Shown here: positions 17,299 to 56,956 of the stretch, in pieces
How the letters are laid out: each line of letters opens with the position of its first letter
How positions within the stretch are numbered: position 1 is the first letter of the stretch
Assembly (NCBI RefSeq): GCF_001941975.2
Contig: NZ_CP146991.1
Location: 3,097,001-3,161,000 of the forward strand
Direction of reading: 5' to 3'
Source of the DNA: Sporomusa sphaeroides DSM 2875
Lineage (GTDB): Bacteria > Bacillota > Negativicutes > Sporomusales > Sporomusaceae
Length of the DNA: 64,000 nucleotides
The notes under the pieces: generated by a model
What the model was told of the DNA's origin: nothing
What the model saw: only the letters and a program-made list of their open reading frames with translations
Databases searched by the model: none
Position numbers and translations under genes: made by a program

Positions 17299-17431
17299 CA
17301 AAAAAAGGCCTAGTTTCCCCTTGCGAGAAATTAGGCCTTCAGTTTGTCTGATCAGCTATACATTCTGTACCATTTATATGCTATTAGTAATGCGGTATTT
17401 ACATTATAGACAACCATGGTAAAATCGTCAA
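17299..17431 (-). promoter_or_regulatory. CTGATCAG attenuator leader, copy A (cystine-type ABC operon)
   Basis: On the minus strand: TTGACG (17426-17431), 17 bp, TATAAT (17403-17408); 47 bases; palindrome CTGATCAG (17348-17355); ACAAA; CTGAAGGC (17335-17342). AAGGCCTA pairs with TAGGCCTT to form a terminator stem (17305-17339), then T7. The motif block is directly fused to the terminator base. The first downstream gene is the cystine-type binding protein at 17176. Confidence 0.85.
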
Positions 17432-17446
17432 GTACATTTTTTAGCC

Positions 17447-18701
17447 TTATGCGTAGGTTTTAGTAAGCCATTTCTTCCCTTCTACCAGTCTGGCAATAAG
17501 CATGGAACAGACTACATTGCCGGTAGAGTTCAGCAGTGTTGCCGGCGCATCGATAATGGTGCTGATGACCGCAATGATAGGCAGCACTTCCGGTGAAAAC
17601 CCATAAACGCTGATAATCAGCATTTCACCGATCATGCCGCCTCCCGGTATGGCTCCCATTACCGCCCCAACCAGAAACGACACACCCACAATGCCCATCC
17701 AGGTCGAGAAACTGCTCATATCCATCCCGAAAAGGCCAAATAAGAATACAATCTTCAGAACCCCGCCGAACACAGAGCCGTCTTTATGAATGTTAGCGCC
17801 TAACGGAATAACGGTTTCCACCATATCTTTAGGTACGCCAATGGCCTTGGCCGACACCAGGTTAATCGGAATCGAAGCAGCGCTGGAGCAGGTGGCAATG
17901 GCTGTAACCGAGGGGGCTAACGCATTGCGCCAAAAAGCCTTTACCCCTTTCTTGCCTGCTGCAACATAGGCATACAAAGTAAAAAAGCCAAAATAATAGA
18001 TAACCGTCAGCACCAAATAAGTAATAAAGGTCTTCAAATAGCCCTGCAGGATTTGTGTGCCCAGCTCACCCACCACATTAGCAAAATAAGCCCCCAAACC
18101 AATCGGTGCATAATACATAATCAGCTGGACTACCTTCATCATGACCTGGGTCGCTGCCGCCAGAAAAGCAGCCACCGGTTTCGCCGCTTCGCCCACCAGC
18201 GCAGTTGCCAGACCGGTCAGCGCGGCCAGCACAATTAAAGGTAAAATATGAGATTTGGACAGTGCCAGCGGAAAATCCGATACGGTAAAGGTTTGCACCA
18301 GCTGTCCCAAAATGCCGGCCTGGTTTGTTTTAGCCGGGCTGCCCGGCTCAGACTGAACTACATTTTGCAGGGTGGCGTAATTGATTCCCTCGGTCGGGTT
18401 CATCAGTAATGCAACCCCCAGGCCAAACACAGCCGCGATCAACGCCGTAACAAAAAATACCAGAATCGTGCTGCCCATAATTTTGCCCAGCCGGCTCATT
18501 TCTCCCATCGAAGCAATAGCCGATGCAATACTGAAAAACACCATCGGCACAATAATCATAAACAACAGGTTTAGAAACAAATCACCCAACGGCTTAAGAA
18601 CAGCAGCCTCCGGTCCTAAAACCACCCCCACGGCTCCACCGATAAGAACCGAAGCCAGCAAAATGATGGAAAATAAATAATCCTTTAAAACTAATTTCAC
18701 G
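17447..18701 (-). CDS. Dicarboxylate/amino acid:cation symporter (DAACS family)
   Basis: The GTG at 18701 (AGGA 9 bases upstream) is preferred to the far-upstream start and gives 417 residues. It shows the SLC1/GltP-type fold with about eight helices, two hairpins, the Ser-rich ATCSSAASIPINL motif and the DGSVFGGVLKIVF and IPGGGMIGEMLII segments. Members import glutamate, aspartate, C4-dicarboxylates, serine or cystine (TcyP). The substrate cannot be fixed; cystine is possible given the neighbour operon. Confidence 0.88.
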
Positions 18702-18779
18702 CTTACCAATCCTTTCGAAATGCGTCTAACCTTATTTCGCCATAAAGCACCCAAGTCCTTGCCGCCGCTAACCGGAATA

Positions 18780-18990
18780 GCCTTTTTTTAAGCTTCAGGG
18801 CTATTTATATATATTATTCAGCTAGTAGTTCACCAAGCCCAAATTCATAGTGTTCTTATCGCGATATTTTCCGCCCAGCTTCGTTGTCGTCGCCTTACAT
18901 ATGTCCGATATGCGCGGCTCCTCCGCCTTGCTGGACGAAAAATCTCGCGCAATTCATCCTATGTCTTTAGACTTGGTGGACTACGGATGA
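18780..18990. other. Gene-free intergenic stretch with GC-rich block
   Basis: About 290 bp separate the symporter gene from the DUF503 gene. Bases 18857-18960 are much richer in CpG than the flanks (GATTTTTCGTCCAGCAAGG on the minus strand) and no frame longer than about 30 codons starts there. It could be a dispersed intergenic repeat or gene debris; only one copy lies in this window. Confidence 0.35.
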
Positions 18991-18993
18991 AAG

Positions 18994-19275
18994 TTAGACA
19001 TATTCAACCAAAAATTCCACAGTTTCGGCTTCGGCACAATCATCCACTATGTCCCGGATAAAATTAACCTGCCTGTCAAGCAAGGTGCCGCTGCTGCTCA
19101 CCATCGCCACGCCGATCACCGCCCGCTGCCAGCAATCCTGGAACCCGGTTTCGGCAACCGAGGCATTTATCCGTGAACGAATTCGCTGGGTAATACTTTT
19201 AATAATCTGCCGTTTTGCCTTGAGAGAACCCACATCAGGCAAAAACAGTTCGATAGTGCAGATAACAACCTTCAT
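18994..19275 (-). CDS. DUF503 family protein
   Basis: The ATG at 19275 follows GGAGG by 8 bases; 93 residues. MKVVICTIELFLPDVGSLKAKR, then ITQRIRSRINASVAETG and WQRAVIGVAMVSS match the YlxP/DUF503 family, often found near ribosome-maturation genes and of unknown function. Here it ends the ABC/two-component operon region instead. Compact alpha/beta fold; no signal peptide. Confidence 0.85.
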   Translation of the reverse strand: MKVVICTIELFLPDVGSLKAKRQIIKSITQRIRSRINASVAETGFQDCWQRAVIGVAMVSSSGTLLDRQVNFIRDIVDDCAEAETVEFLVEYV

Positions 19276-19361
19276 AGCATCAGCCTCCGACAACCTGAAT
19301 CCCCACCTTACGCCGCCGCGGCCCGTCAAATTCGCAAAAATAGAGCCTTGCCAGGTACCTG

Positions 19362-21855: not shown

Positions 21856-21967
21856 GTTTTCACCATTTCTTTTGCCGCCGGTAGTGCCGGGCAGCGAGTA
21901 TTGCTACTGTTATATTATAAAACAGGGCCTCCAATAAGGAAACCCTGTTTCGCCGATGACTAACCGG

Positions 21968-24729: not shown

Positions 24730-24760
24730 TCCCTCCGGCTTAAAAGAATTTTACAACAGG

Positions 24761-24806
24761 GGAAAAAAGGGCCATTGCGCCTCAGACTTTAGCCGCAATG
24801 GCCCTT
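24761..24806 (-). terminator. Intercistronic terminator-like hairpin between binding protein and ATPase genes
   Basis: CGCAATGGCCCTT and AAGGGCCATTGCG (24767-24806) form a perfect 13-bp stem followed by TTTTTTCC on the minus strand. It lies 40 bp after the binding-protein stop and probably gives partial termination so that the binding protein is made in excess. Confidence 0.8.
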
Positions 24807-24845
24807 CGTGTCAGCTTCTGTACTCTATCACGACTAAGAAGGCAG

Positions 24846-25907: not shown

Positions 25908-26035
25908 GCCTTCTCCTCCTTGATTATGTAAAATGGATAACATTCTGATAGTTTAATCATAGCATACTTAAACAGGTTGTCTATCCGACAAAAATTAAGT
26001 AACATCCAAAATTCACAACTGTTTTATATAGTTAG

Positions 26036-27368: not shown

Positions 27369-27372
27369 AGTG

Positions 27373-27918: not shown

Positions 27919-27930
27919 TTGCTGTTCCTC

Positions 27931-32019: not shown

Positions 32020-32133
32020 TTGACATCAATACTATTCACTGCTATACTGTCAATAAATTTCATAATTTTGGTTGATCAGAAAGCTGAAGACCTAAAAGCC
32101 ATTTCGATGGTTTCTTAGGTTTCAGCTTTTTTT
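32020..32133 (+). promoter_or_regulatory. CTGATCAG attenuator leader, copy B (first glycyl radical enzyme)
   Basis: TTGACA (32020-32025), 17 bp, TATACT (32043-32048); 23 bases; TTGATCAG (32072-32079); AAAG; CTGAAGAC (32084-32091). The terminator is longer than in the other copies: GCTGAA at 32083-32088 pairs with TTCAGC at 32121-32126, then TTTTTTT. Here the terminator swallows the CTGA block, so a TCAG/CTGA mini-hairpin would compete with the terminator base. Confidence 0.85.
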
Positions 32134-32208
32134 GATTTTACCAGACTGCACTGCCAAACCAGCAAGCTTCGATGTCCTTGAAAGCTAATTTGAAAAGGAG
32201 TGAAAACT

Positions 32209-43782: not shown

Positions 43783-44787
43783 TTACTGTCTAATCTTTTT
43801 ATAGTAACGATCGTCAAACAATTCCTTAATGTCGTAATCCTTCTTGAGTACTTTGGTTTCTTTGAGGAAGTCTTTTACCTGTTGAAGGGCATCAATATCC
43901 TCTTGAACTATTTTGGAATCCCAATCAGAGCTTTTTACAATTCGTGAAATAGCTGATACAGGAAGCTTGCTTTCTTTCGAAATTAACTCCAAGGCTTCAT
44001 CCGGATTACTTTTGATGAAGGCAGCAGCCTTCTCGTTCACTTTGAGAACACGTTCTGTAATGTCCGGATATTTTTGCGCAAACTCATTCCGCGCCAGGAA
44101 TACACCGATATAACGTTTAACCCCACTTGAAGAATCTTCCAGGATTTTCCCGGCGTTGGCATTCTCTAACACAGAATTCCACGGTTCCCAGGTTGCCACT
44201 GCATCCACGTTTTTAGTTTCCAATGCTGCCTGATGATCACTTGCCGGCAGATTAACAATATTAACATCATTAATGTTCAAGCCATTTTTCTTCAGCAGAA
44301 GAATTAAGAAATGATGGGCGCTTGAGCCAACCTGCACGGCTATCTTTTTCCCCTTCAGGTCGTTAACCGACTTATACGGCGAATCAGGACGAATTAATAA
44401 CGCATTACCCCCGGGAGTATAACCGGCACGGCTAATTACTTTGATATCCACACCAGCCGACTTTGCCGATACAGGCGGCATATCACCGGTGTGGGCAAAA
44501 TCGGCACGACCGCCGGCAAAGGCTTCTATCATCGGTGGTCCGGACAGATACATATCATATTTTACAGCTATTCCGTCTTTGGCAAATTCTTCGTCGTACA
44601 GGCCTTTGGCTTTAGCCAATAAAATGATTATGCTTGAATTCTGGTAGGCAACATGAATTTCTTGCGGTTTCTCCGCCTTTTTATCAGTTCCCGCCGCCGT
44701 CTTCGTATCATTTCCGCCGCAGCCTGCCGCCAAAACCCCAATTACAAATAAGACCAGGATTAACAAAGTCAGCTTTTTCTTTTGCAT
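43783..44787 (-). CDS. Sulfonate/taurine-type ABC solute-binding lipoprotein (set 1)
   Basis: This 334-residue lipoprotein has lipobox VIGVLAAGCG. The SsuA/TauA fold is seen in IHVAYQNSSIIILLAKAKGLYDEEF, SGPPMIEAFAGGRADFAHTGDMPP, VQVGSSAHHFLILLLKKNG, and VDAVATWEPWNSVLENAN. It captures aliphatic sulfonates outside the inner membrane. Gene order here is permease, ATPase, binding protein, downstream of attenuator copy C. Confidence 0.9.
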   Translation of the reverse strand: MQKKKLTLLILVLFVIGVLAAGCGGNDTKTAAGTDKKAEKPQEIHVAYQNSSIIILLAKAKGLYDEEFAKDGIAVKYDMYLSGPPMIEAFAGGRADFAHTGDMPPVSAKSAGVDIKVISRAGYTPGGNALLIRPDSPYKSVNDLKGKKIAVQVGSSAHHFLILLLKKNGLNINDVNIVNLPASDHQAALETKNVDAVATWEPWNSVLENANAGKILEDSSSGVKRYIGVFLARNEFAQKYPDITERVLKVNEKAAAFIKSNPDEALELISKESKLPVSAISRIVKSSDWDSKIVQEDIDALQQVKDFLKETKVLKKDYDIKELFDDRYYKKIRQ

Positions 44788-44887: not shown

Positions 44888-45679
44888 TTAAATACTATAA
44901 GCAAACGGCAATTCAACATCCGAAAAAAATTCAGTGTAAATCTGCTTGCGGATTTTTACAAATTCATAGCTGTTCCGGTCACGCGGCCGAGGTAAGTCTA
45001 CAGGAATAATCGATTTTGCGGTAGCAGGCAGCTTAGACATTACAACGACCCGGTCTCCCAAAAAGATAGCCTCGTCAATATCATGGGTTACCAGCAGAAT
45101 TGTGGTCTTTTCTGCTCCCCAGATACGGATAATCTCTTGCTGCATCGTAATGCGCGTCATGGCATCCAGTGCACCGAAGGGCTCATCAAGCAATAAAACC
45201 TGTGGCCGGTTGACTAATGCTCTGGCTATACTGACCCGCTGCTGCATGCCTCCTGACAATTGATGCGGATACGCTTTGGCAAATCCCGCTAAACCCACTA
45301 ATTCCAGGTGTTCCTGGACAATCCGCTGTTTGTCTTGCTTGTTTTCCTCTTTACCTAAACCAAACAGCACATTCTCTTCAACCGTCAGCCAGGGGTACAG
45401 CCGTGCTTCCTGGAAAACCATCCCCCGGTTTAGTCCCGGCCCTTCAATCCAATCCTCACCCAGCCGAATTTCTCCTGAAAATCCCCGTTCCAACCCGACA
45501 ACAAGCCTGAGAAGCGTACTTTTACCGCAGCCACTGGGACCAATGATGCTGATAAATTCCCCGGGCTCTACCGTTAGATTGATATCCTTCAAAACGTCCA
45601 CCGGCTTACCCGCAATTTGGAATGTCTTATTCAAATTATTGATAATAAGCGGTTGTGGTTCTATTGATGTCAGGCTCAT
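44888..45679 (-). CDS. Sulfonate/taurine-type ABC ATPase (set 1)
   Basis: This 263-residue ATPase has Walker A GPSGCGKST, Q-loop MVFQEARLYPWLTV, signature LSGGMQQRVSIARALVNRP, Walker B LLLDEPFGALD and switch LVTHDIDEA, the SsuB/TauB class. It is 13 bp below the permease gene. Confidence 0.92.
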   Translation of the reverse strand: MSLTSIEPQPLIINNLNKTFQIAGKPVDVLKDINLTVEPGEFISIIGPSGCGKSTLLRLVVGLERGFSGEIRLGEDWIEGPGLNRGMVFQEARLYPWLTVEENVLFGLGKEENKQDKQRIVQEHLELVGLAGFAKAYPHQLSGGMQQRVSIARALVNRPQVLLLDEPFGALDAMTRITMQQEIIRIWGAEKTTILLVTHDIDEAIFLGDRVVVMSKLPATAKSIIPVDLPRPRDRNSYEFVKIRKQIYTEFFSDVELPFAYSI

Positions 45680-45692: not shown

Positions 45693-46466
45693 TTAGTGAA
45701 TGTTTACATTCCAGCGCAGCAAACGCTTTTCGAGCAATTGCAATAATTGTTCAATGATAATACCGGTAAAGCCAATGGAAAGTACCCCTACTAGTACCAC
45801 ATCAATTTGCGATAATTCCCTGGCATACATGATCATATAACCAATACCCGATGCCGCTGCAATAAGTTCAGCTGCCACTACACTGCGCCAGGCTACATCA
45901 ATACCGACCCGGACGCCGGTAAAAATTGCCGGTAAAGCTGCAGGTAAAATGACCTTGGTTAACAGCGTGATATGATCTTTTTCCAGAATGGTAGCTACTT
46001 CTAAGAACTTTTTATCCACATTTTTGATTCCTTCTATGACACTGACCAATACCGTCCAGAAGCTGCCAATGGCAATTACGGTAATTTTTGAGCCTTCATC
46101 AATCCCCATCCATAATATAAGTACCGGAATCCAGGCAATAACCGGAATAGGTCTGAGAACTCCAAAAATCAGGCTTACTGCTGTCTGCAGTTTCCTGGAC
46201 AGTGCAACCTGAACACCCACTAAAATACCAAGGCCTGCCCCAATAATGAAGCCTTGGGCAACCCGCAAAATACTGACTCCCAAATTACTAAGCAATTCCC
46301 CGGAAGATAATACTTCGACCAGTACAACAGCAATGGCGGAAGGCTTTGGTAAAAGGGTGGCCCGAATCAACCCCAATTGACCGGCGGCCTCCCAAATAGC
46401 CAAAATCAAAATAGGTGCCACTAATGCAAGATAGTTTTCTCTAATCCATAGAATGAATTTTTTCAT
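45693..46466 (-). CDS. Sulfonate/taurine-type ABC permease (set 1)
   Basis: This 257-residue SsuC/TauC-like permease has six membrane helices and the coupling loop KKFLEVATILEKDHITLLTKVILPAALPAIFTGVRVG, with RPIPVIAWIPVLILWMGI. It is the first gene of the long sulfur operon that runs to 34737 and follows attenuator copy C. Confidence 0.92.
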   Translation of the reverse strand: MKKFILWIRENYLALVAPILILAIWEAAGQLGLIRATLLPKPSAIAVVLVEVLSSGELLSNLGVSILRVAQGFIIGAGLGILVGVQVALSRKLQTAVSLIFGVLRPIPVIAWIPVLILWMGIDEGSKITVIAIGSFWTVLVSVIEGIKNVDKKFLEVATILEKDHITLLTKVILPAALPAIFTGVRVGIDVAWRSVVAAELIAAASGIGYMIMYARELSQIDVVLVGVLSIGFTGIIIEQLLQLLEKRLLRWNVNIH

Positions 46467-46506: not shown

Positions 46507-46609
46507 AAAAAAAATAAAGGCCAAGAATTCAAGAAGAATTCTTAGCCTTCAGTTCTCTGATCAGCCAATGTATGTAAATTAGTATACAGTACCATTAGAC
46601 AACTGTCAA
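46507..46609 (-). promoter_or_regulatory. CTGATCAG attenuator leader, copy C (long sulfonate-to-homocysteine operon)
   Basis: Minus strand: TTGACA (46604-46609), 17 bp, TATACT (46581-46586); only 16 bases; CTGATCAG (46557-46564); AGAA; CTGAAGGC (46545-46552). The terminator stem AAGGCTAAGAATTC pairs with GAATTCTTGGCCTT (46517-46549), then a T-rich tail. The short distance leaves about 10 transcribed bases before the palindrome, so no large aptamer can precede it. Confidence 0.87.
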
Positions 46610-46643: not shown

Positions 46644-47561
46644 TTATGGATTATAAAAAGCATTTTTTACCGTGTTCAACCGCTCAAATTGTTCTTTAGG
46701 CAAAGTTACAGTATCCAGATGATATTCTTTGCCTACATACTCATATTTTGGCTGTCCCAAACGGTGATAAGGCAGCAGTTCATAGCGAACATTAGGTTTG
46801 CCGCAGATAAAGTTCATTATAGCTTTAATATCTTCTTCCGAGTCATTAAAGCCGGGAATTACCGGGGTTCTCACCAATATGGGCAAATTAGGGAAAGCTG
46901 CTGTCACTTTGATAAAATTTTCAAGAATAACAGCATTGCTTTGTTTGGTCTGTTCCTGATGTTTATTTGCATCCAAACACTTTATATCATAGATCAAAGT
47001 ATTTAGGCAGCGGCAGGCTTTCTCCAGTATCGGCCATGCGGCATAACCACTGGTTTCTATCGTAGTATTGAGCCGCCTGCGCCGGGCCTGTGCCAGCAGT
47101 TCAAGCACAAAATCCGCCTGCAGCAAAGGTTCTCCGCCGCTTACTGTCAACCCGCCGCCTGACCTGGAGAAAAAAATATTGTCGCGTTCCACTACCGCCA
47201 AAATATCATCCACCGTCATTACTTGCCCAAATATGTGTAAGGCGGTTGCAGGACATACCTGTACACACGAAAAACACTTTTGGCAGGCTGCCCTGGCAAC
47301 AACCGGCTTGTCATCCTCACCCGGGAGCAAGGCATTGTGGGGGCAAGCCTTGAGACATCTGCCGCAGGCAGCAATGCCGATACATTTGTTTGGATTATAG
47401 GCCAGTTCAGGCTTACTCTCCTGGGATTCCGGATTACTGCACCAGCGGCACCGCAACGGACAACCTTTTAGAAATACAATTGTTCTTATTCCTGGTCCGT
47501 CATGCACCGAGAATTGCTGAATATTAAAGACATATCCTGCCTGTTTATTAGTGGGTTCCAT
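46644..47561 (-). CDS. islB: Glycyl radical enzyme activating enzyme (radical SAM)
   Basis: This 305-residue protein has the radical SAM motif in IVFLKGCPLRCRWCSNPESQ (CxxxCxxC) and an inserted domain with two ferredoxin clusters (CIGIAACGRCLKACPHNAL, CQKCFSCVQVCPATAL). SAM-binding strands are GGGLTVSGGEPLLQ and TTIETSGYA. It installs the glycyl radical on the lyase 11 bp upstream in the operon. It is the only activase in the window. Confidence 0.93.
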   Translation of the reverse strand: MEPTNKQAGYVFNIQQFSVHDGPGIRTIVFLKGCPLRCRWCSNPESQESKPELAYNPNKCIGIAACGRCLKACPHNALLPGEDDKPVVARAACQKCFSCVQVCPATALHIFGQVMTVDDILAVVERDNIFFSRSGGGLTVSGGEPLLQADFVLELLAQARRRRLNTTIETSGYAAWPILEKACRCLNTLIYDIKCLDANKHQEQTKQSNAVILENFIKVTAAFPNLPILVRTPVIPGFNDSEEDIKAIMNFICGKPNVRYELLPYHRLGQPKYEYVGKEYHLDTVTLPKEQFERLNTVKNAFYNP

Positions 47562-47572
47562 GGGTGGTCCTC

Positions 47573-50053
47573 CTAGAAACTATGCTCGGTTCTGGCAATG
47601 ACATCATTCTGCAGATCCGGGGAAAGATCAATGAAATACGCACTGTATCCGGCCACCCGCACGAGCAGATTCCGGTATTTGTCAGGCTCTTGCTGAGCCG
47701 CCAGCAAAGTTTCTTTGTTAATAATATTAAACTGTAAATGCCACAGCTTTAAGTCACACCAACTGCGGATAAGGGAAATGATTTTTTGTGTTCCAGCTTC
47801 GCCTTGCACGCAGGACGGACTTATCTTTATATTCAACAGCCTGGAGGCCCGCTCCTGGAACCCCAGATTCTTAGAATTGGCATTTGACATGAGCACAGCA
47901 GTAGGCCCGTTTACGTCGGCGCCATGGGAAGCAGAGGATCCGTCAGAAAGAGCCGACCCGGCTTTTCTGCCGTTTGCGGTAGCGCCGACAACTTTGCCGA
48001 AAGGCACATGCGAAGTAACCGGCACATAGCGCACATCAAGACTTACACCGATCGCTTTAGAATACTTGTGAGTAAAGCGCAGCGCCTCCAAATCGATATT
48101 TTGGGCAATAGCATCAGCGGCAGGGTCATTATTCCCAAACCGTGGGGCATTCAACAGCAGTTGTCTTATGTCTTCATGTCCCTGAAAATCATCTGCAAGT
48201 ACTGTTATCAATTCATCAATGGTTATCTGCTGCTCATCATAGACATATTTTTTAATGGCCGCTAACGAATCGACCACTGTAGCATAGCCAATAATGTCAA
48301 AGTAGCCTAAATCGATGCCGCCGTCAATTCTTTCTGAATGCAGGTCCTTGCAGGTCTTTAAGCACTGCTCATGCAACGCAGAGCCTAAGGGTGCGGCGAA
48401 ATGTTTTTCCCTTAACCGATTGGCAATTACCTGTTGTTTAAATGCCTGCTTAAGCAAATTGGTTTGCTGCGTGAGATAGGCTTGCCAAAATTCTTCCCAG
48501 GTTGCAAAATCCCCGGGATTTCCGGTTTCCAGCGTCAGTAATTCATCCTGGTAGATTTTCATTCTGCCGTTATATAGAACCAGCTCTAAGGCAGCAGCAA
48601 TATTAACATACGCGCAGGGACTGGTATAGGTATCCCTGTTAGGCATTCTCACCTCAGTGCAGCCTGAAACGGCATAGGTATTGGCTTCTTTGAAGCTTGC
48701 TCCCTTTGCGACCAGCAGGGGAATAACTTCTTCGTCATTGATCAGTTTGGGAAAGCCTGAGCCATCCTTTATTGTTTCAGCAATCTCATAAAGATATCTT
48801 TCCGGCGAACGCGCATGAACCCTTGCGGCTAAATCCGGATAGTTAATGGGAAACTCCCGTTTTGATTCCAAAAACAAATAGGTTAATTCATTAGTAGCAT
48901 CCTGGCCATTTTCATCCTGGCCGCCAATGGTGACGGCTTCCCAGTGCGCATAGGCCTCATTAAAGCAGGCACCTGCCGGACTGACATACAAATCAATGTA
49001 CTGAGCCATTCCTACCCACATGCATTCTAATAGTTCTTTGGCCCTTTCCCGATCAATCCGCCCTGCTGTCAGATCGGTCCGGTAAAATGAATATAAGTAT
49101 TGATCCATTCTGCCATTTGATATGGTAGCCCCTGTCTTTTGCTCCAGGCGGGAAAACATTTGCGTAAACCATTGTGCTTGAACCGCTTCATAAAAAGTAC
49201 GGGCAGGATTCTCCGGCACCCATTCGCATATGCCGGCGATTGCCAGCAGCTCGCGCTTCCGAATTTCATCATTTTCGGTTGCGGCAAGTTCGGCAGCCAG
49301 TCTTGCATGCCGCCTGGCCCATATGACAATAGCCTCTGCTACCAGGATAACAGCCTCAAGAAAAGGTTTTTTCTCCAGAGCATCATTCGGATCAAATGGA
49401 TCAAGCGCCGCAAGCTGCTCCTCTGCCTCCTGCTTAATACCCTTAAAGCCTTTTGTCAGCACTTTTTCAAAGTCGTGAACCCATTGCAGTGCTGAGCGCA
49501 TTGTGGCTGTTTCATTAACAATAAATCTTGACTTTGATACATTTGCCGGGTCGTAAGTTACCCTTAACACATCTTCCGGCAGAGATTTCGCAAGATTTTC
49601 GTAAAAGGTTTTACCCTGCCAGTAAGGAGCAATCTCCTGTTTGATATAGGCTATATCTTCAGCGGCAATATAAAAAGGAGACTCTATTCGTTTGGGCAAC
49701 TCTTCCGCCATTTTTTCTAAAAAGCAGCCGTCCAGCTCCGGATAAATAACACCATATCTTCCCGGGCAGCCGGCACGGCCGGCCAGCAGCTGTTTATCAT
49801 CAATATATACAGTAATGTTTTCTGCAATATGTTTAAGCGCCTTCGCCCACCGGAGAATTAACGGCTGTCCCTCAGTGGTTTTAAATGACTCGGTAAAAAA
49901 CCTGGCTCTTTCGATATCGATTTTGGGCTGAGCTCCTTTAAAAGAATTAAAGATCTCAGAAGGCCGCTGCCTGTCATAAGCACTAATTTTACCTGCCAAT
50001 TCTTCCTTTACTCTTTGCTCCTGCGGAGACAACACAGCATTACTGACTCCCAT
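47573..50053 (-). CDS. Glycyl radical enzyme 2, isethionate sulfite-lyase family
   Basis: The ATG at 50053 follows AGAGGGGTG; 826 residues. Gly802 in [10 protein letters not shown]; Cys465 and Glu467 in [13 protein letters not shown]; Arg186 and Gln190 in MRSALQWVH; Arg675 in LDVRYVPV. These keep a constant offset of 3 from IslA positions recalled from the literature. The position equal to IslA Phe682 is Val679 here, unlike enzyme 1 (Phe677), so the pocket may accept a different or larger sulfonate (for example a C3 hydroxysulfonate). Directly followed by its activase; preceded by attenuator copy D. Confidence 0.85.
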
Positions 50054-50091
50054 GAATAACACCCCTCTGTTTTGTGTAGTTAAAAGACAAC

Positions 50092-50220
50092 AAAAAAAGC
50101 CAAATATGCGTTGCTATCGCACATTTAGCCTTCAGTTATCTGATCAGCCCGGTCATTCAATTGTATTGCTTAACTCTGATGTATATTTATTACATTACAA
50201 CATTTTACAGATCCGGTCAA
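50092..50220 (-). promoter_or_regulatory. CTGATCAG attenuator leader, copy D (second glycyl radical enzyme)
   Basis: Minus strand: TTGACC (50215-50220), 17 bp, TAATGT (50192-50197); 44 bases; CTGATCAG (50140-50147); ATAA; CTGAAGGC (50128-50135). The stem AAGGCTAAATGTGCG pairs through G-U wobbles with CGCATATTTGGCTTT (50096-50132), then T-run. The wobbles show that stem pairing is kept although sequence differs from the other copies. Confidence 0.85.
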
Positions 50221-50282
50221 TACTTTTTGTGTAAAATCCTGCTGTGACAATAAGAGAGAAACCGTTCATCAATTTGCGTATT

Positions 50283-51104
50283 TCATATGTTGTAGCATAA
50301 ATCTTGTTTATTTATTAAATCCAGAATTTCTTCCCGTGTCATTTGAAAGCGTGTGGAGTAACGTGTTCGATTCGAATTCTCCCCGGTGATAGAATACGTA
50401 AAGTCGGTTTTAATCTCTTTAATGATTTTTCCCGGTCTCCTCGACATGACTACTACCCGGGTTCCCAGGGCTAATGCTTCATCAACGTCATGGGTAATAA
50501 ACAGAATCGTGCATTTTGTTTCCCACCAGATATTTCGGATAAGTGTCTGCATCTGCTCGCGTGTTAAAGCATCTAATGCTCCAAACGGTTCATCCATTAA
50601 TAATACCCGGGGACTATTAACCAATGCCCTGGCAATGGCGACCCGTTGTTTCATACCCCCGGATAATTCATACGGTTTATTATTACGAAACTCAAGCAAA
50701 CCGACTTTTCTCAAATACTCTTCAGTACGCTTTTGGCTTTCATTAGCTGCCACCCCGCGCATCTTTAGTCCGAACTTGATGTTGTCTTCTACAGTTAACC
50801 AGGGATATAAGGGTGGCTGCTGAAAAACGACTCCGCGGTGCCAGTCAGCGCCTTTTATTGGCTGTCCTTCCATAAGAGCAGTACCGCCTGTTGGTGTAAT
50901 AAAGCCGGCAATAATTTTTAATAATGTACTTTTACCGCAACCGGAAGATCCAAGCAGACAGACAAATTCACCTTCATGCAAATTCAGATTGATGTTTTCA
51001 AGTGCGTTCACATTATTATCCGAGTTGTAGGTCAGATAAACCTCGTTCAAGGCAATCACAACATCTGTCTGCGCATCAGCCCAACCACATGCAGCCAAAA
51101 CCAT
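50283..51104 (-). CDS. Sulfonate/taurine-type ABC ATPase (set 2)
   Basis: This 273-residue ATPase starts at an ATG with AGGAGG 9 bases upstream. Walker A GSSGCGKST, Q-loop VVFQQPPLYPWLTV, signature LSGGMKQRVAIARALVNSP, Walker B LLMDEPFGALD, switch FITHDVDEA. The N-terminal 17 residues (VLAACGWADAQTDVV) are not part of the domain. It is last in the aminotransferase-led operon. Confidence 0.9.
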   Translation of the reverse strand: MVLAACGWADAQTDVVIALNEVYLTYNSDNNVNALENINLNLHEGEFVCLLGSSGCGKSTLLKIIAGFITPTGGTALMEGQPIKGADWHRGVVFQQPPLYPWLTVEDNIKFGLKMRGVAANESQKRTEEYLRKVGLLEFRNNKPYELSGGMKQRVAIARALVNSPRVLLMDEPFGALDALTREQMQTLIRNIWWETKCTILFITHDVDEALALGTRVVVMSRRPGKIIKEIKTDFTYSITGENSNRTRYSTRFQMTREEILDLINKQDLCYNI

Positions 51105-51123
51105 AACAGCCAGCCTCCTGTCT

Positions 51124-52158
51124 TTACTTCAAGGCGTTTTCAATATATTTAGGATTAATCGCTTTTTCAAAAACGTCCTGTGCCGGGGCTTTTTCGATGG
51201 CTTTCTGCTCAACCAGAAAATCAGCCGTGGCTTTTAAAACATTTGCCAAATTACCCTTTTTAGCACTCGAACCAAAATATTTATCCGAGATTTCTTCCTG
51301 CGCAGACAGCCAAATTAATTCTTTCGCCTGTTTCAAAGCTTCCGCCTTTTCAATATTTAAGCCTTTTGCCAGCGCTGCTGCAGCATCATCCGGATTATTT
51401 TTATAGAGCTCGTAGGCTTTTTGCTGTACTTTTATATACTTGGTTACCAAGTCAGGATATTTTTGGGCAAAACTTTTGCTAACAATCCCCAGATCGGCAG
51501 TAACTATGCCTTTTTCCGCCAGTTTTCCGCTATCAGTGATGACCTTGCCATCTGCCAGCAGCTTTCCTAATACCGGATTCCAAACGTACGCAGCATCAAT
51601 ATCTCCTCTTTGCCATGCAGCAAGAATATCAGGTGGCTGCATATCAAGAATTTTTACTTCAGCCAGACTTACGCCCTCTAATTTCAGGGCATTTAACAAA
51701 CTATAATGAGCTGTTGAGCTAAAGGGAACGGCTATCCGCTTCCCCTTCAGATCCTTTACTGAGTTTACATTAGCTGTATTCTTTACCGCTAATGATTCTG
51801 CCGCACCAATCACATCATGAATCCAGAAGACTTCATAATTAAGTCCGTTTGCTATTCCGACAGCCGCAGGCGTAGTGCCCAGCAAACCAAAATCAATGCT
51901 GTTTGAGGCAAACGCATTATTGACATCCCGGCCTGAATCAAATTTTTTAAAGTTGACTTTTACCCCCAGTTCTGTTTCATAAAACCCTTTTACTTTTGCT
52001 ACAATTTCATCATTGGGTATATCCTGAAAACCAATCGTTATTGCTTCCGGTTTTTGGGCACTGCTGACCTTAGTAGTCTTGCCGCAACCGGTTAATTGCA
52101 GTGCTAACGCCATAATTAAACCACCTATTGCCAGCAGCCTCATCAATTTTTTACTCAT
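51124..52158 (-). CDS. Taurine-type ABC solute-binding lipoprotein (set 2)
   Basis: This 344-residue lipoprotein has lipobox ALALQLTGCG. TauA-like fold: ITIGFQDIPNDEIVAKVKGFYE, SNSIDFGLLGTTPAAVGIANGLNYEVFWIHDVIGAAE, VPFSSTAHYSLLNAL, and GDIDAAYVWNPVLGKL. The IHDVIGAAE segment is typical of taurine binders as I recall them. It belongs with the permease and the aminotransferase in the same operon. Confidence 0.9.
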   Translation of the reverse strand: MSKKLMRLLAIGGLIMALALQLTGCGKTTKVSSAQKPEAITIGFQDIPNDEIVAKVKGFYETELGVKVNFKKFDSGRDVNNAFASNSIDFGLLGTTPAAVGIANGLNYEVFWIHDVIGAAESLAVKNTANVNSVKDLKGKRIAVPFSSTAHYSLLNALKLEGVSLAEVKILDMQPPDILAAWQRGDIDAAYVWNPVLGKLLADGKVITDSGKLAEKGIVTADLGIVSKSFAQKYPDLVTKYIKVQQKAYELYKNNPDDAAAALAKGLNIEKAEALKQAKELIWLSAQEEISDKYFGSSAKKGNLANVLKATADFLVEQKAIEKAPAQDVFEKAINPKYIENALK

Positions 52159-52176
52159 ACAAAAATCTCTCCCCTT

Positions 52177-52953
52177 TTATTCTTTCCCTTTCCAGGGTAC
52201 AACCTTGTGTTCAAAAAACCTGATAACCCCGTCGATAAGAATTCCCGTAATACCCATAATAAAAATACCCAGAAAGATAATATCACTTCTCAGAAACTTG
52301 CTGGCATCCAGCACCATCCAGCCTATACCGGTGACTGCTGCCACCATTTCTGCCGCAACTAACGTCGTGTAGGCAACACCCATTGCCGTTCTTAGCCCAA
52401 TAAAGATATCTGGCAAACATGCCGGAAAAATTACATGAAAGAAAATCTGCCTGCTATTCGCTCCCAGTGTATAGGCGCCATCAATGTAATCAGTCCTTAT
52501 TTTCTTTACCCCGGATGCACACGCAATGTAGGCCGGGGCAAAGCCTGCTAAATACAATAAGGCAATTTTAGATGAGTTATCAATTCCCAGCCACAAAACC
52601 AATAATGTATAGTACGCTAACGGCGGCAGGGGCCGGTAAAATTCGATTATCGGCTCAATAACAGCAGCCACCCGGGAATTGTAACCGCTGATTAGCCCTA
52701 AAGGGACAGCTGTTACTATCACCAAAAAGAATGAGCCAAGCAGCCGCAACATGCTATCACCGAGATGGGTAAGCAGGCTATTTTCCTTGTAGCCATCCCG
52801 GGCAATTTCAATGAAACTTTTTATTACCTTGTAAGGAGAAGGAACTAAAACATCAGAGAATAGATGCAGCTCGGTTACGATAAACCAGAGTAATAGTAAA
52901 AAAGCTATTGTACTAACTGTCAATATTTTTTCAATTCTGATTCGTTTTGCCAT
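52177..52953 (-). CDS. Taurine-type ABC permease (set 2)
   Basis: This 258-residue TauC-like permease has six membrane helices and coupling loop DYIDGAYTLGANSRQIFFHVIFPACLPDIFIGLRTAMG, with FYRPLPPLAYYTLLVLWLGI. It lies 49 bp below the aminotransferase gene. Confidence 0.92.
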   Translation of the reverse strand: MAKRIRIEKILTVSTIAFLLLLWFIVTELHLFSDVLVPSPYKVIKSFIEIARDGYKENSLLTHLGDSMLRLLGSFFLVIVTAVPLGLISGYNSRVAAVIEPIIEFYRPLPPLAYYTLLVLWLGIDNSSKIALLYLAGFAPAYIACASGVKKIRTDYIDGAYTLGANSRQIFFHVIFPACLPDIFIGLRTAMGVAYTTLVAAEMVAAVTGIGWMVLDASKFLRSDIIFLGIFIMGITGILIDGVIRFFEHKVVPWKGKE

Positions 52954-53002
52954 ATCATTCCTCTCCCTAACTTCACAACTCGGTCTCCAATTTGCCTCTT
53001 AA

Positions 53003-54388
53003 TTAAAGCTTTTGTTTTCCCAGCGCAACACGAAACGCATTGACAATTTTTTCAATGCCTTCCCGGTTTATAATAAGCGGTGGCGCGGTATAAAGCACAT
53101 TGTTATGTCCGGGAACACTGCGCACCATTCTGCCGATAATAACGCCTTCGGCTTTGGCATCGGCCACAATCTGTGCCAAAAGCTTCTCGCTCAAAGGTCG
53201 CTTGGTTTTCTTATCCTCCACCAATTCGACGCCCACAAGCAGGCCTTTACCCCTTACATCACCAACAATCGGGAGTTCTTCCAATTCCTTGAGATTGTCA
53301 ATTAAGTATTTTCCCATTGCTGCACTGTTTTCCGCCAGTTTTTCTTCTTCGATAATCTTAATGTTCTCCAAGGCTGCCGCCGAGCAGCCGGCACAGCCGC
53401 CGAAGGTACTGATATCCCGGAAATAACCACTTACATCTTCTGCCTCAACCAGAAACTGATCAAAAATACCTTTTCTGGCAACAGTCGCTGATATCGGCAT
53501 ATAGCCGCTGGCTAAACCTTTGGCCATTGTAATAATATCCGGATCTATCCCGTAATGCTGATGACCAAACATCAAGCCGGTTCTGGCAAAGCCTGTAACT
53601 ACCTCATCCAGGATGAGCAGCACTTCATACCGGTTACATATTTCCCGAATAACCGAATAGTACTCAGCAACAGGCGGTATAATTCCGCCGCCGGCAGTTA
53701 CCGGCTCGATAATAACTGCAGCAACACTGTCTTCCCCTTCTTTTTGGATTACAGTTTCAAGAGCGCGGGCACACTCAAGATTACATCCGGGGTAACTTTT
53801 GCCAAAATGGCACCGGTAGCAAAGCGCATGCGGGATTTCGGCAAAACCTTCAGGCAGCGGACCAAATTTTGCTTTTCGCTCCCGTTGTCCGCTGCTGGCT
53901 AACGCGGCTAATGTTGTGCCGTGATAATCCCGGTCCCGGTATATAATCTTGTATTTGTCCTTATCAGGGTACTTTTCCCGGAAATATTGCCTGGCGATTT
54001 TAAAAGATTTTTCATTGGCCTCAGAACCGCTGTTTGAAATATACACTTTAGGCAGATTAGGCAGTAACGAAGCCAGTTTTTGAGCCAGCAAAATATATGG
54101 CGGCGTAGCCATTGAACCGGCGTAATAAGGCAAGCGTCGTAACTGCTCGCAGACAGCGTTAACTATAGATTCTCTTCCATACCCTACATTTACGGCCCAG
54201 ACACCGCCTGATAAACCATCTATATATTCCTTGCCAAGGGCATCTTTGATAATAACGCCCTGACCTTCCACCATTATCGGCGGCTCTTGTTTTTCAAATA
54301 ACTTATGGTTTGTCAGATGCAGCCACAAATGATCACGGTGAATTTTTGCCAACTCTTCATGGCTAAACCCGCCTAAATCTGTGCTCAT
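53003..54388 (-). CDS. tpa: Taurine:pyruvate aminotransferase-like class III aminotransferase
   Basis: This 461-residue class III PLP enzyme shows GVWAVNVGYGRESIVNAVCEQL, YISNSGSEANEKSFKIARQY, RDRDYHGTTLAALASSG, ILDEVVTGFARTG and the PLP Lys in ITMAKGLASGYMPISATV. The N-terminus (HLWLHLTNHKLFEKQEPPI) resembles Tpa of Bilophila as I recall it. Tpa converts taurine and pyruvate to sulfoacetaldehyde and alanine. Its operon includes a taurine-type ABC importer, follows attenuator copy E, and diverges from a GntR regulator, all supporting taurine catabolism. Other omega-amino acids remain possible substrates. Confidence 0.87.
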   Translation of the reverse strand: MSTDLGGFSHEELAKIHRDHLWLHLTNHKLFEKQEPPIMVEGQGVIIKDALGKEYIDGLSGGVWAVNVGYGRESIVNAVCEQLRRLPYYAGSMATPPYILLAQKLASLLPNLPKVYISNSGSEANEKSFKIARQYFREKYPDKDKYKIIYRDRDYHGTTLAALASSGQRERKAKFGPLPEGFAEIPHALCYRCHFGKSYPGCNLECARALETVIQKEGEDSVAAVIIEPVTAGGGIIPPVAEYYSVIREICNRYEVLLILDEVVTGFARTGLMFGHQHYGIDPDIITMAKGLASGYMPISATVARKGIFDQFLVEAEDVSGYFRDISTFGGCAGCSAAALENIKIIEEEKLAENSAAMGKYLIDNLKELEELPIVGDVRGKGLLVGVELVEDKKTKRPLSEKLLAQIVADAKAEGVIIGRMVRSVPGHNNVLYTAPPLIINREGIEKIVNAFRVALGKQKL

Positions 54389-54543
54389 TTTATTCCCTTC
54401 CCTCCGGTTGCTAACTTCCTGATGGGATACACACTCGCAAGCGTGGATTATAGCTTCTATTTATACAGACATCATGATGTACGTACAACTATATCCCGCC
54501 ACCTCCTCTTTGTAATAAATGCAAGTCCTATTGTCTTTTTAAA

Positions 54544-54656
54544 ATAAAAAGACAAAGACTCACATCCGTACAGAATGTTAATCTTCGCCTTCAGTTATTC
54601 TGATCAGCTCACTATTAAGTTATATACTTTATACCATATCAGTAATATACTGTCAA
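54544..54656 (-). promoter_or_regulatory. CTGATCAG attenuator leader, copy E (aminotransferase/taurine ABC operon)
   Basis: Minus strand: TTGACA (54651-54656), 17 bp, TATAAA (54628-54633); 20 bases; CTGATCAG (54600-54607); AATAA; CTGAAGGC (54587-54594). The stem AAGATTAACAT pairs with ATGTGAGTCTT (54555-54585) with one mismatch and a wobble, then TGTCTTTTTATTTT. This is the weakest of the terminator stems, and AAGGC is not paired here although it is conserved, which suggests AAGGC has a role beyond the stem. Confidence 0.82.
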
Positions 54657-54684
54657 TAGTTATTTAAATAAACTATCCTTACAA

Positions 54685-54713
54685 TTGTCCATACATCCGT
54701 ATAATGTTATACT
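54685..54713 (+). promoter_or_regulatory. Promoter of the GntR regulator with possible operator
   Basis: TTGTCC (54685-54690), 17 bp, TATACT (54708-54713). Within it ACATCCGTA-TA-ATGTTA (54693-54709) resembles ACATCCGTA-CAGA-ATGTTA at 54562-54580 near the divergent gene, a candidate shared operator. Confidence 0.7.
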
Positions 54714-54774
54714 AGAACAAGCGATATTTTTGCATAACACAATTACTTTCTCCAATAAGGAAGGATACCGCTCT

Positions 54775-55500
54775 ATGTTAGATAAGAAAAATTCCATACC
54801 CTTGCATTTACAGGTACGAAACATTTTACGAAACGAAATTTTAAAAGGTACTTACACTGAAAAAATCCCTCCGGAATATGATCTTATGAATAAGTTTTCA
54901 GTAAGCCGCGCTACCATACGACGTGCTATCCGCAGCTTAATTGAGGAGGGTGTCCTGGAATCGCGCCAGGGTCTGGGTACCTTTGTCGCTGTCAGACCTA
55001 TCGAAGAATGGCTGGGTAATTTAAGTACCTTCTTTGAAATCATCAAGGAAATGGGCATGACCCCCAATATACAGGTTCTAAGCCAGGAAGTGGTAAAAGC
55101 CCCTCAAGATGCAGCCACAATCTTTAAAACTGACCAAGTATATCGGACAATCAGGCTGCGCTTGGCCAATGATACACCGGTTGTCCTGGAAACGCAGTAT
55201 TACCCGTTAGATATTGGGGAAAAATTGGCAAACTTTGATTTAAACAATGTTTCTACTTATGATATTTTAGAAACCGAGCTTGGAGTCAGCCTCTGGGAGG
55301 CCAAGCAAACAATTGCCGCAATAATCCCGACAGCCGTAGAAAAAAGGCTGCTTGCTTTAACTGTAGAACCCTGTTGCGCGCTTTTGTCCAAACGTTTGGT
55401 AATGGATCATAATAGCAATCCTATTGAATACGAAAAAAGTATTTATCGCAGTGATATGTACGCTTTCCGCATCAATTTAACCCGCGGCAGAAAAAATTAA
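54775..55500 (+). CDS. GntR/HutC-family transcriptional regulator with UTRA domain
   Basis: The ATG at 54775 follows AAGGAAGG; 241 residues. Winged helix: IPLHLQVRNILRNEILKGTY, PPEYDLMNKFSVSRATIRRAIRSLIEEGVLESRQGLGTFV. UTRA ligand domain: VYRTIRLRLANDTPVVLETQYYP, YDILETELGVSLWEAKQTI. It is divergent from the aminotransferase operon with about 390 bp between, so it probably controls taurine genes with taurine or a product as ligand. Confidence 0.92.
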   Translation: MLDKKNSIPLHLQVRNILRNEILKGTYTEKIPPEYDLMNKFSVSRATIRRAIRSLIEEGVLESRQGLGTFVAVRPIEEWLGNLSTFFEIIKEMGMTPNIQVLSQEVVKAPQDAATIFKTDQVYRTIRLRLANDTPVVLETQYYPLDIGEKLANFDLNNVSTYDILETELGVSLWEAKQTIAAIIPTAVEKRLLALTVEPCCALLSKRLVMDHNSNPIEYEKSIYRSDMYAFRINLTRGRKN

Positions 55501-55540
55501 CCGCCAGGATAGTTCCAAACCGGCTGTTCAGAACAACTGC

Positions 55541-55574
55541 AGGCCGGAAAGCTGTTATTGCTTTCCGGCCTTTT
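55541..55574 (+). terminator. Terminator of the GntR regulator gene
   Basis: AGGCCGGAAAG pairs with CTTTCCGGCCT and is followed by TTT, 40 bp below the stop. Confidence 0.88.
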
Positions 55575-55676
55575 GCCATTTGCAGACACTCGGCCTGCCC
55601 CCCAATGTTTCAACTTTGCTGAAACAAGTTCACCAGCGCAAATTAGTCATCAGATAAAAACAACATTTCGGCATGG

Positions 55677-55710
55677 ATGGTTAACTATGTTTTTTATATA
55701 GGTTTACAAT
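55677..55710 (+). promoter_or_regulatory. BirA-type biotin operator 1, overlapping the bioB promoter
   Basis: ATGGTTAAC, 16 bp, GTTTACAAT: each half differs by one base from the Firmicute BirA half-sites ATTGTTAAC / GTTAACAAT. The right half contains the -35 TTTACA (55703-55708) of a promoter whose -10 is TAAAAT (55726-55731), 17-bp spacer, so holo-BirA binding should block transcription. Confidence 0.8.
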
Positions 55711-55740
55711 CCACCCTAAACACTATAAAATAGCAATTAG

Positions 55741-55774
55741 TTGGTAAACTCTTTATTTTTTTCAGGTTAACGAT
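55741..55774 (+). promoter_or_regulatory. BirA-type biotin operator 2, downstream of the bioB promoter
   Basis: TTGGTAAAC, 16 bp, GTTAACGAT. Same spacing as operator 1, 64 bp centre to centre, located just after the expected transcription start and before the AAGGGGG ribosome-binding site. Confidence 0.7.
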
Positions 55775-55798
55775 ATGCAAAACAAGGGGGACTAACAA

Positions 55799-56815
55799 AT
55801 GGGTTCTAATGAAGGCAAAAATATGAGTTATGATTTAATTTTTACATTAGGCAGAAAAGTTCTTAATGGTGAACAATTAACCTTTGCGGAAGCACTGCAG
55901 CTTACGCAAATTGACGAAGCTGATATCCCAATTTTACTGGGTATTGCCAATAAAGTGCGCATAAGATTTACTGGTGATCAGATAGACACTTGCGAGATAG
56001 TTAATGCCCGTTCGGGGGGTTGTTCGGAGGACTGCAAGTTTTGCGCACAGTCCGCTCACCATGATGTAGAATTCGACAGCTATTCTTTAATGAGCGAAGA
56101 TCAGATTCTGCAAGCGGCAAAAACTGCAGAATCCCATGGCGCGTATCGCTTTTGCATTGTGACTGCCGGCTGTGGCATGAAGCATGACCCGGATTTCGAG
56201 AAAATTATCCAGTCAATCCAGCGTATTGGACACGAAACAGGCCTGGAACGCTGCTGTTCATTGGGTATTTTAGCTCCAGATCATGTTAAGTCGCTAAAAG
56301 CAGCAGGGATTACCCGTTACCACCACAACCTTGAAACAAGCAAAAGTTTTTTTGAGCAAATTTGTACAACTCATACCTATGAGGAACGGGTAGAAACAAT
56401 TAAGAATGTTAAGGCAGAAGGCTTAGAAGCCTGTTCTGGCGGTATTATTGGCCTGGGTGAAACCTGGGAGCAGCGTCTTGAACTTGCTTTTGCACTTAAA
56501 GAATTAGATGTTGACTCAATACCCATTAATGTCCTAAATCCTGTTAAAGGAACGGCCCTCGAAGACCGTCCCCCTCTTAAACCACTGGAAGTGCTGCAAA
56601 CCTTTGCGATTTTCAGACTCATCCTGCCTACTAAAATCCTGCGCTATGCCGGCGGCCGCGAAAAAGCCTTGGGAGAACTTGTGCCGCTTGGGTTTCTTTC
56701 CGGAATCAATGGCATGCTAATTGGCAACTACCTTACGACATCCGGACGCGGAGCCGCTGCCGACCTTAACACCGCTCACAGCCTGGGACTCAAACCCATT
56801 TCAGAGCACACATAA
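55799..56815 (+). CDS. bioB: Biotin synthase BioB
   Basis: This 338-residue radical SAM enzyme has the cluster motif SGGCSEDCKFCAQSAHHD. The [2Fe-2S] ligand region and substrate motifs are RFCIVTAGCG, RYHHNLETSKSFFEQICTTHT, CSGGIIGLGETWEQR, IPINVLNPVKGTALED. It inserts sulfur into dethiobiotin. The start follows AAGGGGG by 8 bases. No other bio gene is adjacent, so it may finish biotin from imported or distant precursors. Two BirA-like operators precede it. Confidence 0.96.
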   Translation: MGSNEGKNMSYDLIFTLGRKVLNGEQLTFAEALQLTQIDEADIPILLGIANKVRIRFTGDQIDTCEIVNARSGGCSEDCKFCAQSAHHDVEFDSYSLMSEDQILQAAKTAESHGAYRFCIVTAGCGMKHDPDFEKIIQSIQRIGHETGLERCCSLGILAPDHVKSLKAAGITRYHHNLETSKSFFEQICTTHTYEERVETIKNVKAEGLEACSGGIIGLGETWEQRLELAFALKELDVDSIPINVLNPVKGTALEDRPPLKPLEVLQTFAIFRLILPTKILRYAGGREKALGELVPLGFLSGINGMLIGNYLTTSGRGAAADLNTAHSLGLKPISEHT

Positions 56816-56839
56816 GGACGCAGAGAACAGAATGGTTTG

Positions 56840-56956
56840 TTGACAATATTTACTACGTTATATATAATAATTAATAATTTACTGTCGATTATTTCCGGCT
56901 GATCAGATAGCTGAAGGCCTAGGACAGACTTTTTCTGTCCTAGGCCTTTTATTTTT
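56840..56956 (+). promoter_or_regulatory. CTGATCAG attenuator leader, copy F (GGDEF/HD-GYP gene)
   Basis: TTGACA (56840-56845), 17 bp, TATAAT (56863-56868); 30 bases; CTGATCAG (56899-56906); ATAG; CTGAAGGC (56911-56918). A perfect 15-bp stem AAGGCCTAGGACAGA pairs with TCTGTCCTAGGCCTT (56914-56948), then TTATTTTT. This is the only copy in front of a signalling gene. Confidence 0.87.

What the first reader, a model, noticed from the sequence alone, without database searches (positions are those of the whole stretch)
17299..56956. Six-copy CTGATCAG/CTGAAGGC attenuator defining a sulfur regulon
Six leaders (A 17.3, B 32.1, C 46.5, D 50.1, E 54.6, F 56.9 kb) share one architecture: sigma-A promoter with an exact 17-bp spacer, 16-47 bases, the palindrome CTGATCAG, 4-5 A-rich bases (ATAA, ATAG, AGAA, AAAG, AATAA, ACAAA), CTGAAGGC, then an intrinsic terminator. 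Stem sequences differ between copies while pairing is kept. In B the palindrome has one change (TTGATCAG) and CTGAAGAC replaces CTGAAGGC. Five copies precede sulfur acquisition genes. TCAG-N4/5-CTGA can form a 4-bp hairpin abutting the terminator. It does not match S-box, T-box or other riboswitches I know. A compact antitermination or terminator-control element for sulfur status, read by a small protein or metabolite, fits best. I cannot exclude that it has been described elsewhere.
Basis: partly seen in the sequence, partly recalled or inferred. Interest (0 to 1): 0.95.

Follow-up and report, generated by a model that had tools for sequence, protein, structure and literature searches.

The report
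Sulfur antiterminator read by OscA/YezD proteins
Six gene leaders in this Sporomusa-like genome carry a small RNA hairpin that overlaps a transcription stop signal, and since a hairpin of the same design follows the gene for a small sulfur-starvation protein (OscA/YezD) in distantly related bacteria, that protein likely binds the hairpin and is predicted to switch sulfur-uptake genes on when sulfur is scarce.

Summary
The six leaders are real. The motif is part of a 7-bp hairpin: outer pairs G-Y-U with G-R-C, internal loop GA/A, a 4-bp stem and an A-rich loop. Its 3' outer strand (AGRC) is also the base of the terminator: in 240 of 252 copies all four bases are used there. So it looks like a mutually exclusive antiterminator. 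Pairs covary, leader B included; stems are UCAG:CUGA, UUAG:CUAA, CCAG:CUGG, CUAG:CUAG. The genome has about 15 copies. The element occurs in Negativicutes, Bacilli, Clostridia and some 'Deltaproteobacteria' MAGs, often before cysK, cysH, sulfate and sulfonate genes. Genomes with it carry DUF2292 (OscA/YezD), an orphan family: 43 of 43 with two or more motifs among 80 Negativicutes-group genomes, 34 of 36 in the order of Priestia. There the element often sits just behind yezD; in a gammaproteobacterial family all 40 hits of a hairpin model lie 33-74 nt behind oscA, though 31 of 69 oscA genomes have no hit. Best reading: OscA/YezD holds the hairpin open against the terminator. Binding, signal and direction are inferred.

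The parts
17300..17356 (-). Leader A: antiterminator core 17335-17356 plus terminator to 17300; promoter -35 17426-17431, -10 17403-17408; ahead of ABC transporter operon 16325-17176 onward
32071..32133 (+). Leader B: core 32071-32091 (GTTGATCAG..CTGAAGAC, U:A form of the covarying pair) plus terminator; promoter 32020-32025 / 32043-32048; ahead of sulfopropanediol dehydratase 32200-34686
46507..46565 (-). Leader C: core 46545-46565 plus terminator; promoter 46604-46609 / 46581-46586; ahead of sulfonate-type ABC permease 45693-46466, ATPase 44888-45679, NMT1-like binding protein 43783-44787
50092..50148 (-). Leader D: core 50128-50148 plus terminator; weak promoter 50215-50220 / 50192-50197; ahead of sulfopropanediol dehydratase 47573-50062 and its activase 46644-47561
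54546..54608 (-). Leader E: core 54587-54608 plus terminator; promoter 54651-54656 / 54628-54633; ahead of class-III aminotransferase 53003-54388 and ABC genes 50283-52953
56898..56956 (+). Leader F: core 56898-56918 plus terminator; promoter 56840-56845 / 56863-56868; ahead of PAS-GGDEF-HD protein 57029-58543

Best explanation
The element is an RNA hairpin that shares four bases with the terminator behind it, so it is predicted to work as an antiterminator, and it is likely held in place by a small protein of the DUF2292 (OscA/YezD) family when sulfur is scarce. SHOWN by sequence: a covarying 7-bp hairpin with a nearly fixed GA/A internal loop; overlap of its 3' outer strand with the base of the terminator stem; placement before many sulfur genes; strong co-occurrence with DUF2292; and location directly behind yezD/oscA genes in many Bacilli and Gammaproteobacteria. 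INFERRED: (1) DUF2292 binds the GA/A hairpin, two domains (fused in tandem, two adjacent genes, or a dimer) per site; (2) binding captures AGRC, which leaves the terminator hairpin detached from its U-tract, so transcription reads through; (3) without the protein the much stronger terminator (median -22.9 against -5.0 kcal/mol) wins; (4) the protein's amount or activity follows sulfur status; (5) in Bacilli yezD is transcribed ahead of the terminator that it opens.
For: Covariation: 84 cores, 63 distinct, 441 of 441 cells paired, 4 of 7 pairs with double changes, 0 of 500 shuffles as high in paired cells or score, slid controls 21-51% paired. Five rows were dropped before that count: three with three mismatches and two (L023:2028, window:55523) that passed the filter but break pairs. 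Before dropping: 10 of 12 two-mismatch variants with a terminator keep all 7 pairs, against 12.6% of random double substitutions. With position 1 left free: all 21 copies with G0, A7', C8' have T1; nine other matches do not fit. Exclusivity: 240 of 252. Co-occurrence: 80 genomes (own plus 79), motif >=2: 43 DUF2292+ / 0 DUF2292-, motif <2: 11 / 26, Fisher 1e-12; order of Priestia, 34/2 versus 18/66, 2e-14. Of 36 non-Negativicutes genomes that I picked from 119 stretches of the pattern scan 27 have DUF2292: 27 of 30 whose match has G0 and a hairpin, 0 of 6 of the rest. Adjacency: 26 of 54 hits in the Priestia order lie 7-190 nt behind a DUF2292 domain; 40 of 40 in 99 gammaproteobacterial genomes lie 33-74 nt behind one. 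Hairpin behind oscA in 30 of the 34 loci read (the best-scoring ones), shuffles 0.25%. oscA inactivation makes Pseudomonas corrugata chromate-sensitive and oscA-sbp is one transcript (passages of PMC2996968).
Against: No binding or expression data. Co-occurrence could arise if DUF2292 is only a member of the sulfur regulon. Of 54 DUF2292+ genomes three (G014, G037, G054) show no element with the covariance model and 18 of 52 in the Priestia order have none at E<=1e-4; 31 of 69 oscA genomes in the gammaproteobacterial family have no hairpin hit at E<=0.001. Of 26 DUF2292-negative genomes 11 have model matches at E<=0.1, two of them below 1e-5 (G002, G047, both incomplete); L078, L101 and L130 have good matches but no DUF2292 found. 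13 of the 16 training hairpins of the gammaproteobacterial model come from the family searched. In the 12 gammaproteobacterial loci read no intrinsic terminator was evident behind the hairpin, so the mechanism there must differ. 17 of 264 paired cores lack a terminator by the test (12 by that). The predicted DUF2292 fold has no convincing PDB match and nothing marks it as RNA-binding.
Confidence: 0.8

Rival explanations
1. The hairpin is a protein-dependent antiterminator, but another protein reads it; DUF2292 is only a co-regulated sulfur gene.
For: DUF2292 genes lie inside the regulon: 4 of 77 scanned Negativicutes downstream proteins are DUF2292, so co-occurrence alone does not prove binding. 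No other candidate protein family was searched for.
Against: In many Bacilli the hairpin follows yezD itself, and in the gammaproteobacterial family the model hits lie behind oscA and nowhere else.
Confidence: 0.1
2. A protein-free riboswitch: the hairpin binds a sulfur metabolite directly.
For: Compact, conserved internal loop, attenuator layout, sulfur genes downstream.
Against: Seven pairs and a variable A-rich loop leave little room for a pocket (inference); presence tracks a protein family across phyla.
Confidence: 0.05
3. CTGATCAG is a DNA operator for a repressor that blocks RNA polymerase downstream of the promoter; the terminator is incidental.
For: CTGATCAG is a perfect palindrome 16-47 nt behind the -10 box.
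Against: The palindrome is broken in many copies (TTGATCAG, CTGATTAG, CTGACTAG) while RNA pairing is kept, and the spacing to the terminator is fixed. In Bacilli the element also stands 0-12 nt behind yezD stop codons.
Confidence: 0.03

Closest known systems
RAT hairpin with LicT/SacY/BglG antiterminators (recalled)
   Same: Short hairpin with internal loop(s) overlapping the 5' arm of a terminator, stabilised by a small protein dimer
   Different: Internal loop (GA/A), candidate protein family (DUF2292) and regulon (sulfur, not sugars) differ; no Rfam match at the element
ANTAR attenuation systems NasR/EutV (recalled; titles seen in the listing)
   Same: Protein-dependent antitermination by hairpins next to a terminator
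   Different: Two hairpins with hexaloops there (recalled); here one hairpin, mostly with a 4-5 nt loop, and a conserved internal loop
OscA, sulfur starvation response protein (NF033785), Pseudomonas corrugata
   Same: Same DUF2292 domain; oscA-sbp transcription unit; loss makes cells chromate-sensitive; Viti 2009 names it in the sulphur starvation response (its title and PMC2996968 passages seen, paper not read)
   Different: Called a small protein of unknown function there; no RNA partner in what I saw. Sporomusa proteins are tandem and score 40 and 48.4 bits, under the 85-bit cut-off
Unnamed Bacilli attenuator cluster of Naville and Gautheret 2010 (PMC2965389; passages and section 14 seen)
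   Same: One sentence: a common element upstream of a sulfonate ABC operon and an unknown gene, possibly for sulfonate metabolism
   Different: Its alignment is in a supplement that I could not read, so identity is open; that section gives no structure, protein or wider spread
S-box (SAM) riboswitch
   Same: Terminator control of sulfur genes; stands before cysH in Bacillus methanolicus (PMC4342826 passages)
   Different: Large aptamer for SAM (recalled); not found at these leaders

Membership tests
DUF2292 (PF10055) for the candidate protein | Profile score above the gathering cut-off of 22 bits | tested here: met
   Own genome 4 domain matches, best E 1e-13, in two tandem proteins
OscA equivalog (NF033785) | Score above the curated 85 bits | tested here: not met
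   Sporomusa proteins 40 and 48.4 bits. Of 8 proteins the gammaproteobacterial L283 and L276 pass (128, 124.8); the other six do not
Known Rfam RNA family, S-box and T-box included | Match at gathering score | tested here: not met
   Window: only three cobalamin riboswitches, elsewhere; 17 loci: nothing at the element; 54500-57000 at E<=1 only two sub-threshold miRNA hits
RAT/BglG-type antiterminator | Hairpin overlaps the terminator 5' arm | tested here: met
   240 of 252 copies with all four bases
RAT/BglG-type antiterminator | RAT consensus and a CAT_RBD protein | not tested
   No search for PF03123 was made; the consensus is known only from memory
ANTAR target | Two tandem hairpins with hexanucleotide loops (recalled) | tested here: not met
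   One hairpin ahead of the terminator, loops 4-6 nt in alignment A1

The most novel reading that the evidence does not exclude
DUF2292 (OscA/YezD) is a phylum-spanning family of RNA-binding sulfur regulators whose shared target is a hairpin with a GA/A internal loop; it opens terminators in Bacillota and acts by another read-out on the oscA-sbp transcript in Gammaproteobacteria, which would explain the sulfur-starvation and chromate phenotype of oscA mutants.
Probability: 0.7. Interest if true: 0.95.

Novelty: new variant of a known kind. Interest (0 to 1): 0.92.

Why it matters
It would give a mechanism to a widespread orphan protein family known as 'sulfur starvation response protein', define the first protein-read antitermination regulon for sulfur that I know of (recall), and offer a 22-nt tag that points to sulfur-scavenging genes (sulfonate, sulfopropanediol, nitrogenase-like and unknown genes) in many Bacillota. 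The key steps can be tested with one small protein and one short RNA.

Tried and rejected

Literature: ten searches, listings and abstract starts seen: CTGATCAG, yezD, DUF2292 (2 papers), OscA, cysH and antitermination. Passages seen of PMC7921472, PMC2996968, PMC12892942, PMC3596284, PMC6385201, PMC2965389 (also one section), PMC4342826, PMC12581299. In PMC6385201 a yezD deletion did not affect survival in deep starvation. None of this reports an RNA target for OscA/YezD; the library holds only open-licence papers and Viti 2009 itself was not read.

Bias to note: R1 and R2 are structure models, so their hits lean to paired forms. R2 was trained on hairpins behind oscA, so adjacency is partly built in; the lack of hits elsewhere is not. 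The 34 oscA loci are the best-scoring ones. Many of the 264 cores come from a scan that asked for a T-run. Related genomes are not independent events.
Full report
OBSERVATION. The six leaders are present as described. CTGATCAG-N3-7-CTGAAG is found 5 times in the window and 0 times in 100 shuffles; B is the sixth. Five promoters are strong with exactly 17 bp; D is weak. Each copy runs straight into an intrinsic terminator.

THE GENOME. A pattern search of the own genome gave 12 matches of CTGATCAG-N3-7-CTGA with 0 in the reversed control; three of these lack terminators. With relaxed and model searches the window plus three fetched stretches hold 15 copies; the whole genome has 17 model hits at E<=0.1. 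Added copies stand before uroporphyrinogen-decarboxylase-like methyltransferases, a polar amino-acid type ABC transporter, a PatB-family C-S lyase, a PALP (cysK-like) gene followed by an ABC gene and a DUF2292 gene, and a chemoreceptor; nitrogenase-like genes lie nearby. A genome of the same genus (G004) shares a record with Sporomusa acidovorans (loci L109 and L212), so the organism is most likely a Sporomusa.

THE STRUCTURE. In the 72 pattern matches the base before CTGATCAG is nearly always G, and all four copies with CTGAAGAC had TTGATCAG. A search of 300 class genomes that left position 1 free and asked for a non-G at 7' (ends G or C) returned 30 matches: all 21 with G0, A7', C8' have T1, from six families; the other nine do not fit, two of them in G019, a genome with real copies. 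A mismatch scan of 65 loci with a terminator filter gave 16 variants; of 12 with two mismatches 10 keep all seven pairs (12.6% expected for random double substitutions), with UUAG:CUAA, CCAG:CUGG, A0:U8' and C2:G6' among them. I dropped five rows before the alignment: three with three mismatches and two (L023:2028, window:55523) that break the pairs. On the remaining 84 cores every cell pairs and four of seven pairs show double changes, 0 of 500 shuffles reaching the paired share or the score. Bacilli found by the model add CUAG:CUAG and more CCAG:CUGG stems.

THE SWITCH. In 252 copies with a terminator, all four of A5' G6' R7' C8' are paired in the terminator's 5' arm in 240, three in 9 and two in 3. 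Median folding energy is -22.9 for the terminator and -5.0 kcal/mol for the hairpin alone. Both cannot form fully, and the hairpin needs help to win. This is the logic of an antiterminator; the direction is inferred.

SPREAD AND GENES. Of 70 downstream proteins from Bacilli, 26 match PAPS reductase, 20 each of two solute-binding models, 6 TauE/SafE, 3 luciferase-like and 3 ABC ATPases. Of 77 from Negativicutes, 13 are PALP (cysK-like), 10 ABC permeases, 4 Cys/Met enzymes, 4 DUF2292 and 4 DUF4418; many others are of different or unknown kind, so the Negativicutes set is broader. The two sets are 147 of 223 distinct downstream proteins, chosen by a simple rule for the next open frame.

THE PROTEIN. 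The DUF2292 gene behind cysK (L003) led to the test. In 80 genomes (the own one and 79 relatives), DUF2292 occurs in 54 and the motif in 55; 43 have two or more motifs and all have DUF2292, while the 26 without DUF2292 have one or none. With the covariance model at E<=0.1, 51 of 54 with and 11 of 26 without DUF2292 have matches; below 1e-5 only two of those 11 (G002, G047) remain. In 120 genomes of the order of Priestia, 34 of 36 with the element have DUF2292, against 18 of 84 without. In 36 non-Negativicutes genomes that I picked from the pattern scan, 27 have DUF2292; of the nine without, six have a match that lacks G0 or a hairpin, and L078, L101, L130 do not. In the Priestia order 26 of 54 elements lie just behind the DUF2292 gene, usually by 0-12 nt from the stop codon and often followed by cysH. 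Among loci fetched by the protein alone, a GA/A hairpin with seven pairs lies within 250 nt behind the gene in 3 of 8 Negativicutes, 13 of 23 from the genomes (already known to hold an element), and 30 of 34 gammaproteobacterial loci, against 1.4%, 1.7% and 0.35% of shuffles. The gammaproteobacterial form is mostly CCC-GA-C[TC]GG-N4-CC[GA]G-A-GGG ahead of a gene whose product begins like a sulfate-binding protein (LLNVSYDPTRE). A model of 16 such hairpins, 13 of them from this family, finds 40 hits in 99 genomes, each behind its own oscA gene and none elsewhere; 38 of 69 genomes with oscA and 0 of 30 without have one. Two of the proteins pass the OscA cut-off.

INTERPRETATION. The simplest account is that DUF2292 binds the GA/A hairpin. 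Tandem proteins in Sporomusa, adjacent gene pairs in other Negativicutes and single-domain proteins elsewhere fit a two-domain reader. OscA is described as a small protein of unknown function whose loss makes cells chromate-sensitive, in one transcript with sbp (PMC2996968 passages); a positive regulator would fit. What it senses is unknown.

NOVELTY. No Rfam family was found at the element. One paper mentions, in one sentence, a Bacilli attenuator before a sulfonate ABC operon (PMC2965389 section 14); it may be this element. The mechanism resembles RAT/LicT antitermination (recalled), but RNA, candidate protein and regulon are different, so I call it a new variant of a known kind.

Noticed in passing
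window 6167-7554 (-): Three cobalamin riboswitches within 1.4 kb (Rfam RF00174).
   Followed up: no
window 55523-55571 (+): Between the GntR gene and bioB a terminator is preceded by GCTGTTCAG-AACAA-CTGCAGGC, which resembles the element but does not keep its pairs; perhaps a divergent copy or a plain terminator.
   Followed up: partly
L276, L282, L288, L294, behind the oscA hairpin: A conserved short reading frame with Cys codons (like MNTHRYCSCRPRMRS-stop) lies between the hairpin and the next gene: possibly a cysteine leader peptide (read by eye).
   Followed up: no
L027-L032, L036: DUF2292 as two adjacent single-domain genes of different type, where Sporomusa has a fused tandem protein.
   Followed up: no
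L001 4324-7160, L003 4533-6776: Nitrogenase-like and NifH/NifB-like genes beside the elements; recall suggests methylthio-alkane reductase for sulfur scavenging.
   Followed up: no
L040 6130: A perfect core without terminator about 33 nt ahead of an ATG: a possible translational version.
   Followed up: no
L085, L086, L117, L130, L132, L138, L160, L172, L173, L175: 'Deltaproteobacteria' MAGs carry the element, several before proteins that look like sulfonate-type binding proteins by eye: transfer, or binning error.
   Followed up: partly
window 57029-58543; Negativicutes loci: A PAS-GGDEF-HD protein behind leader F, and DUF4418, DUF1847 and DUF2325 proteins as putative sulfur-regulon members.
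   Followed up: no
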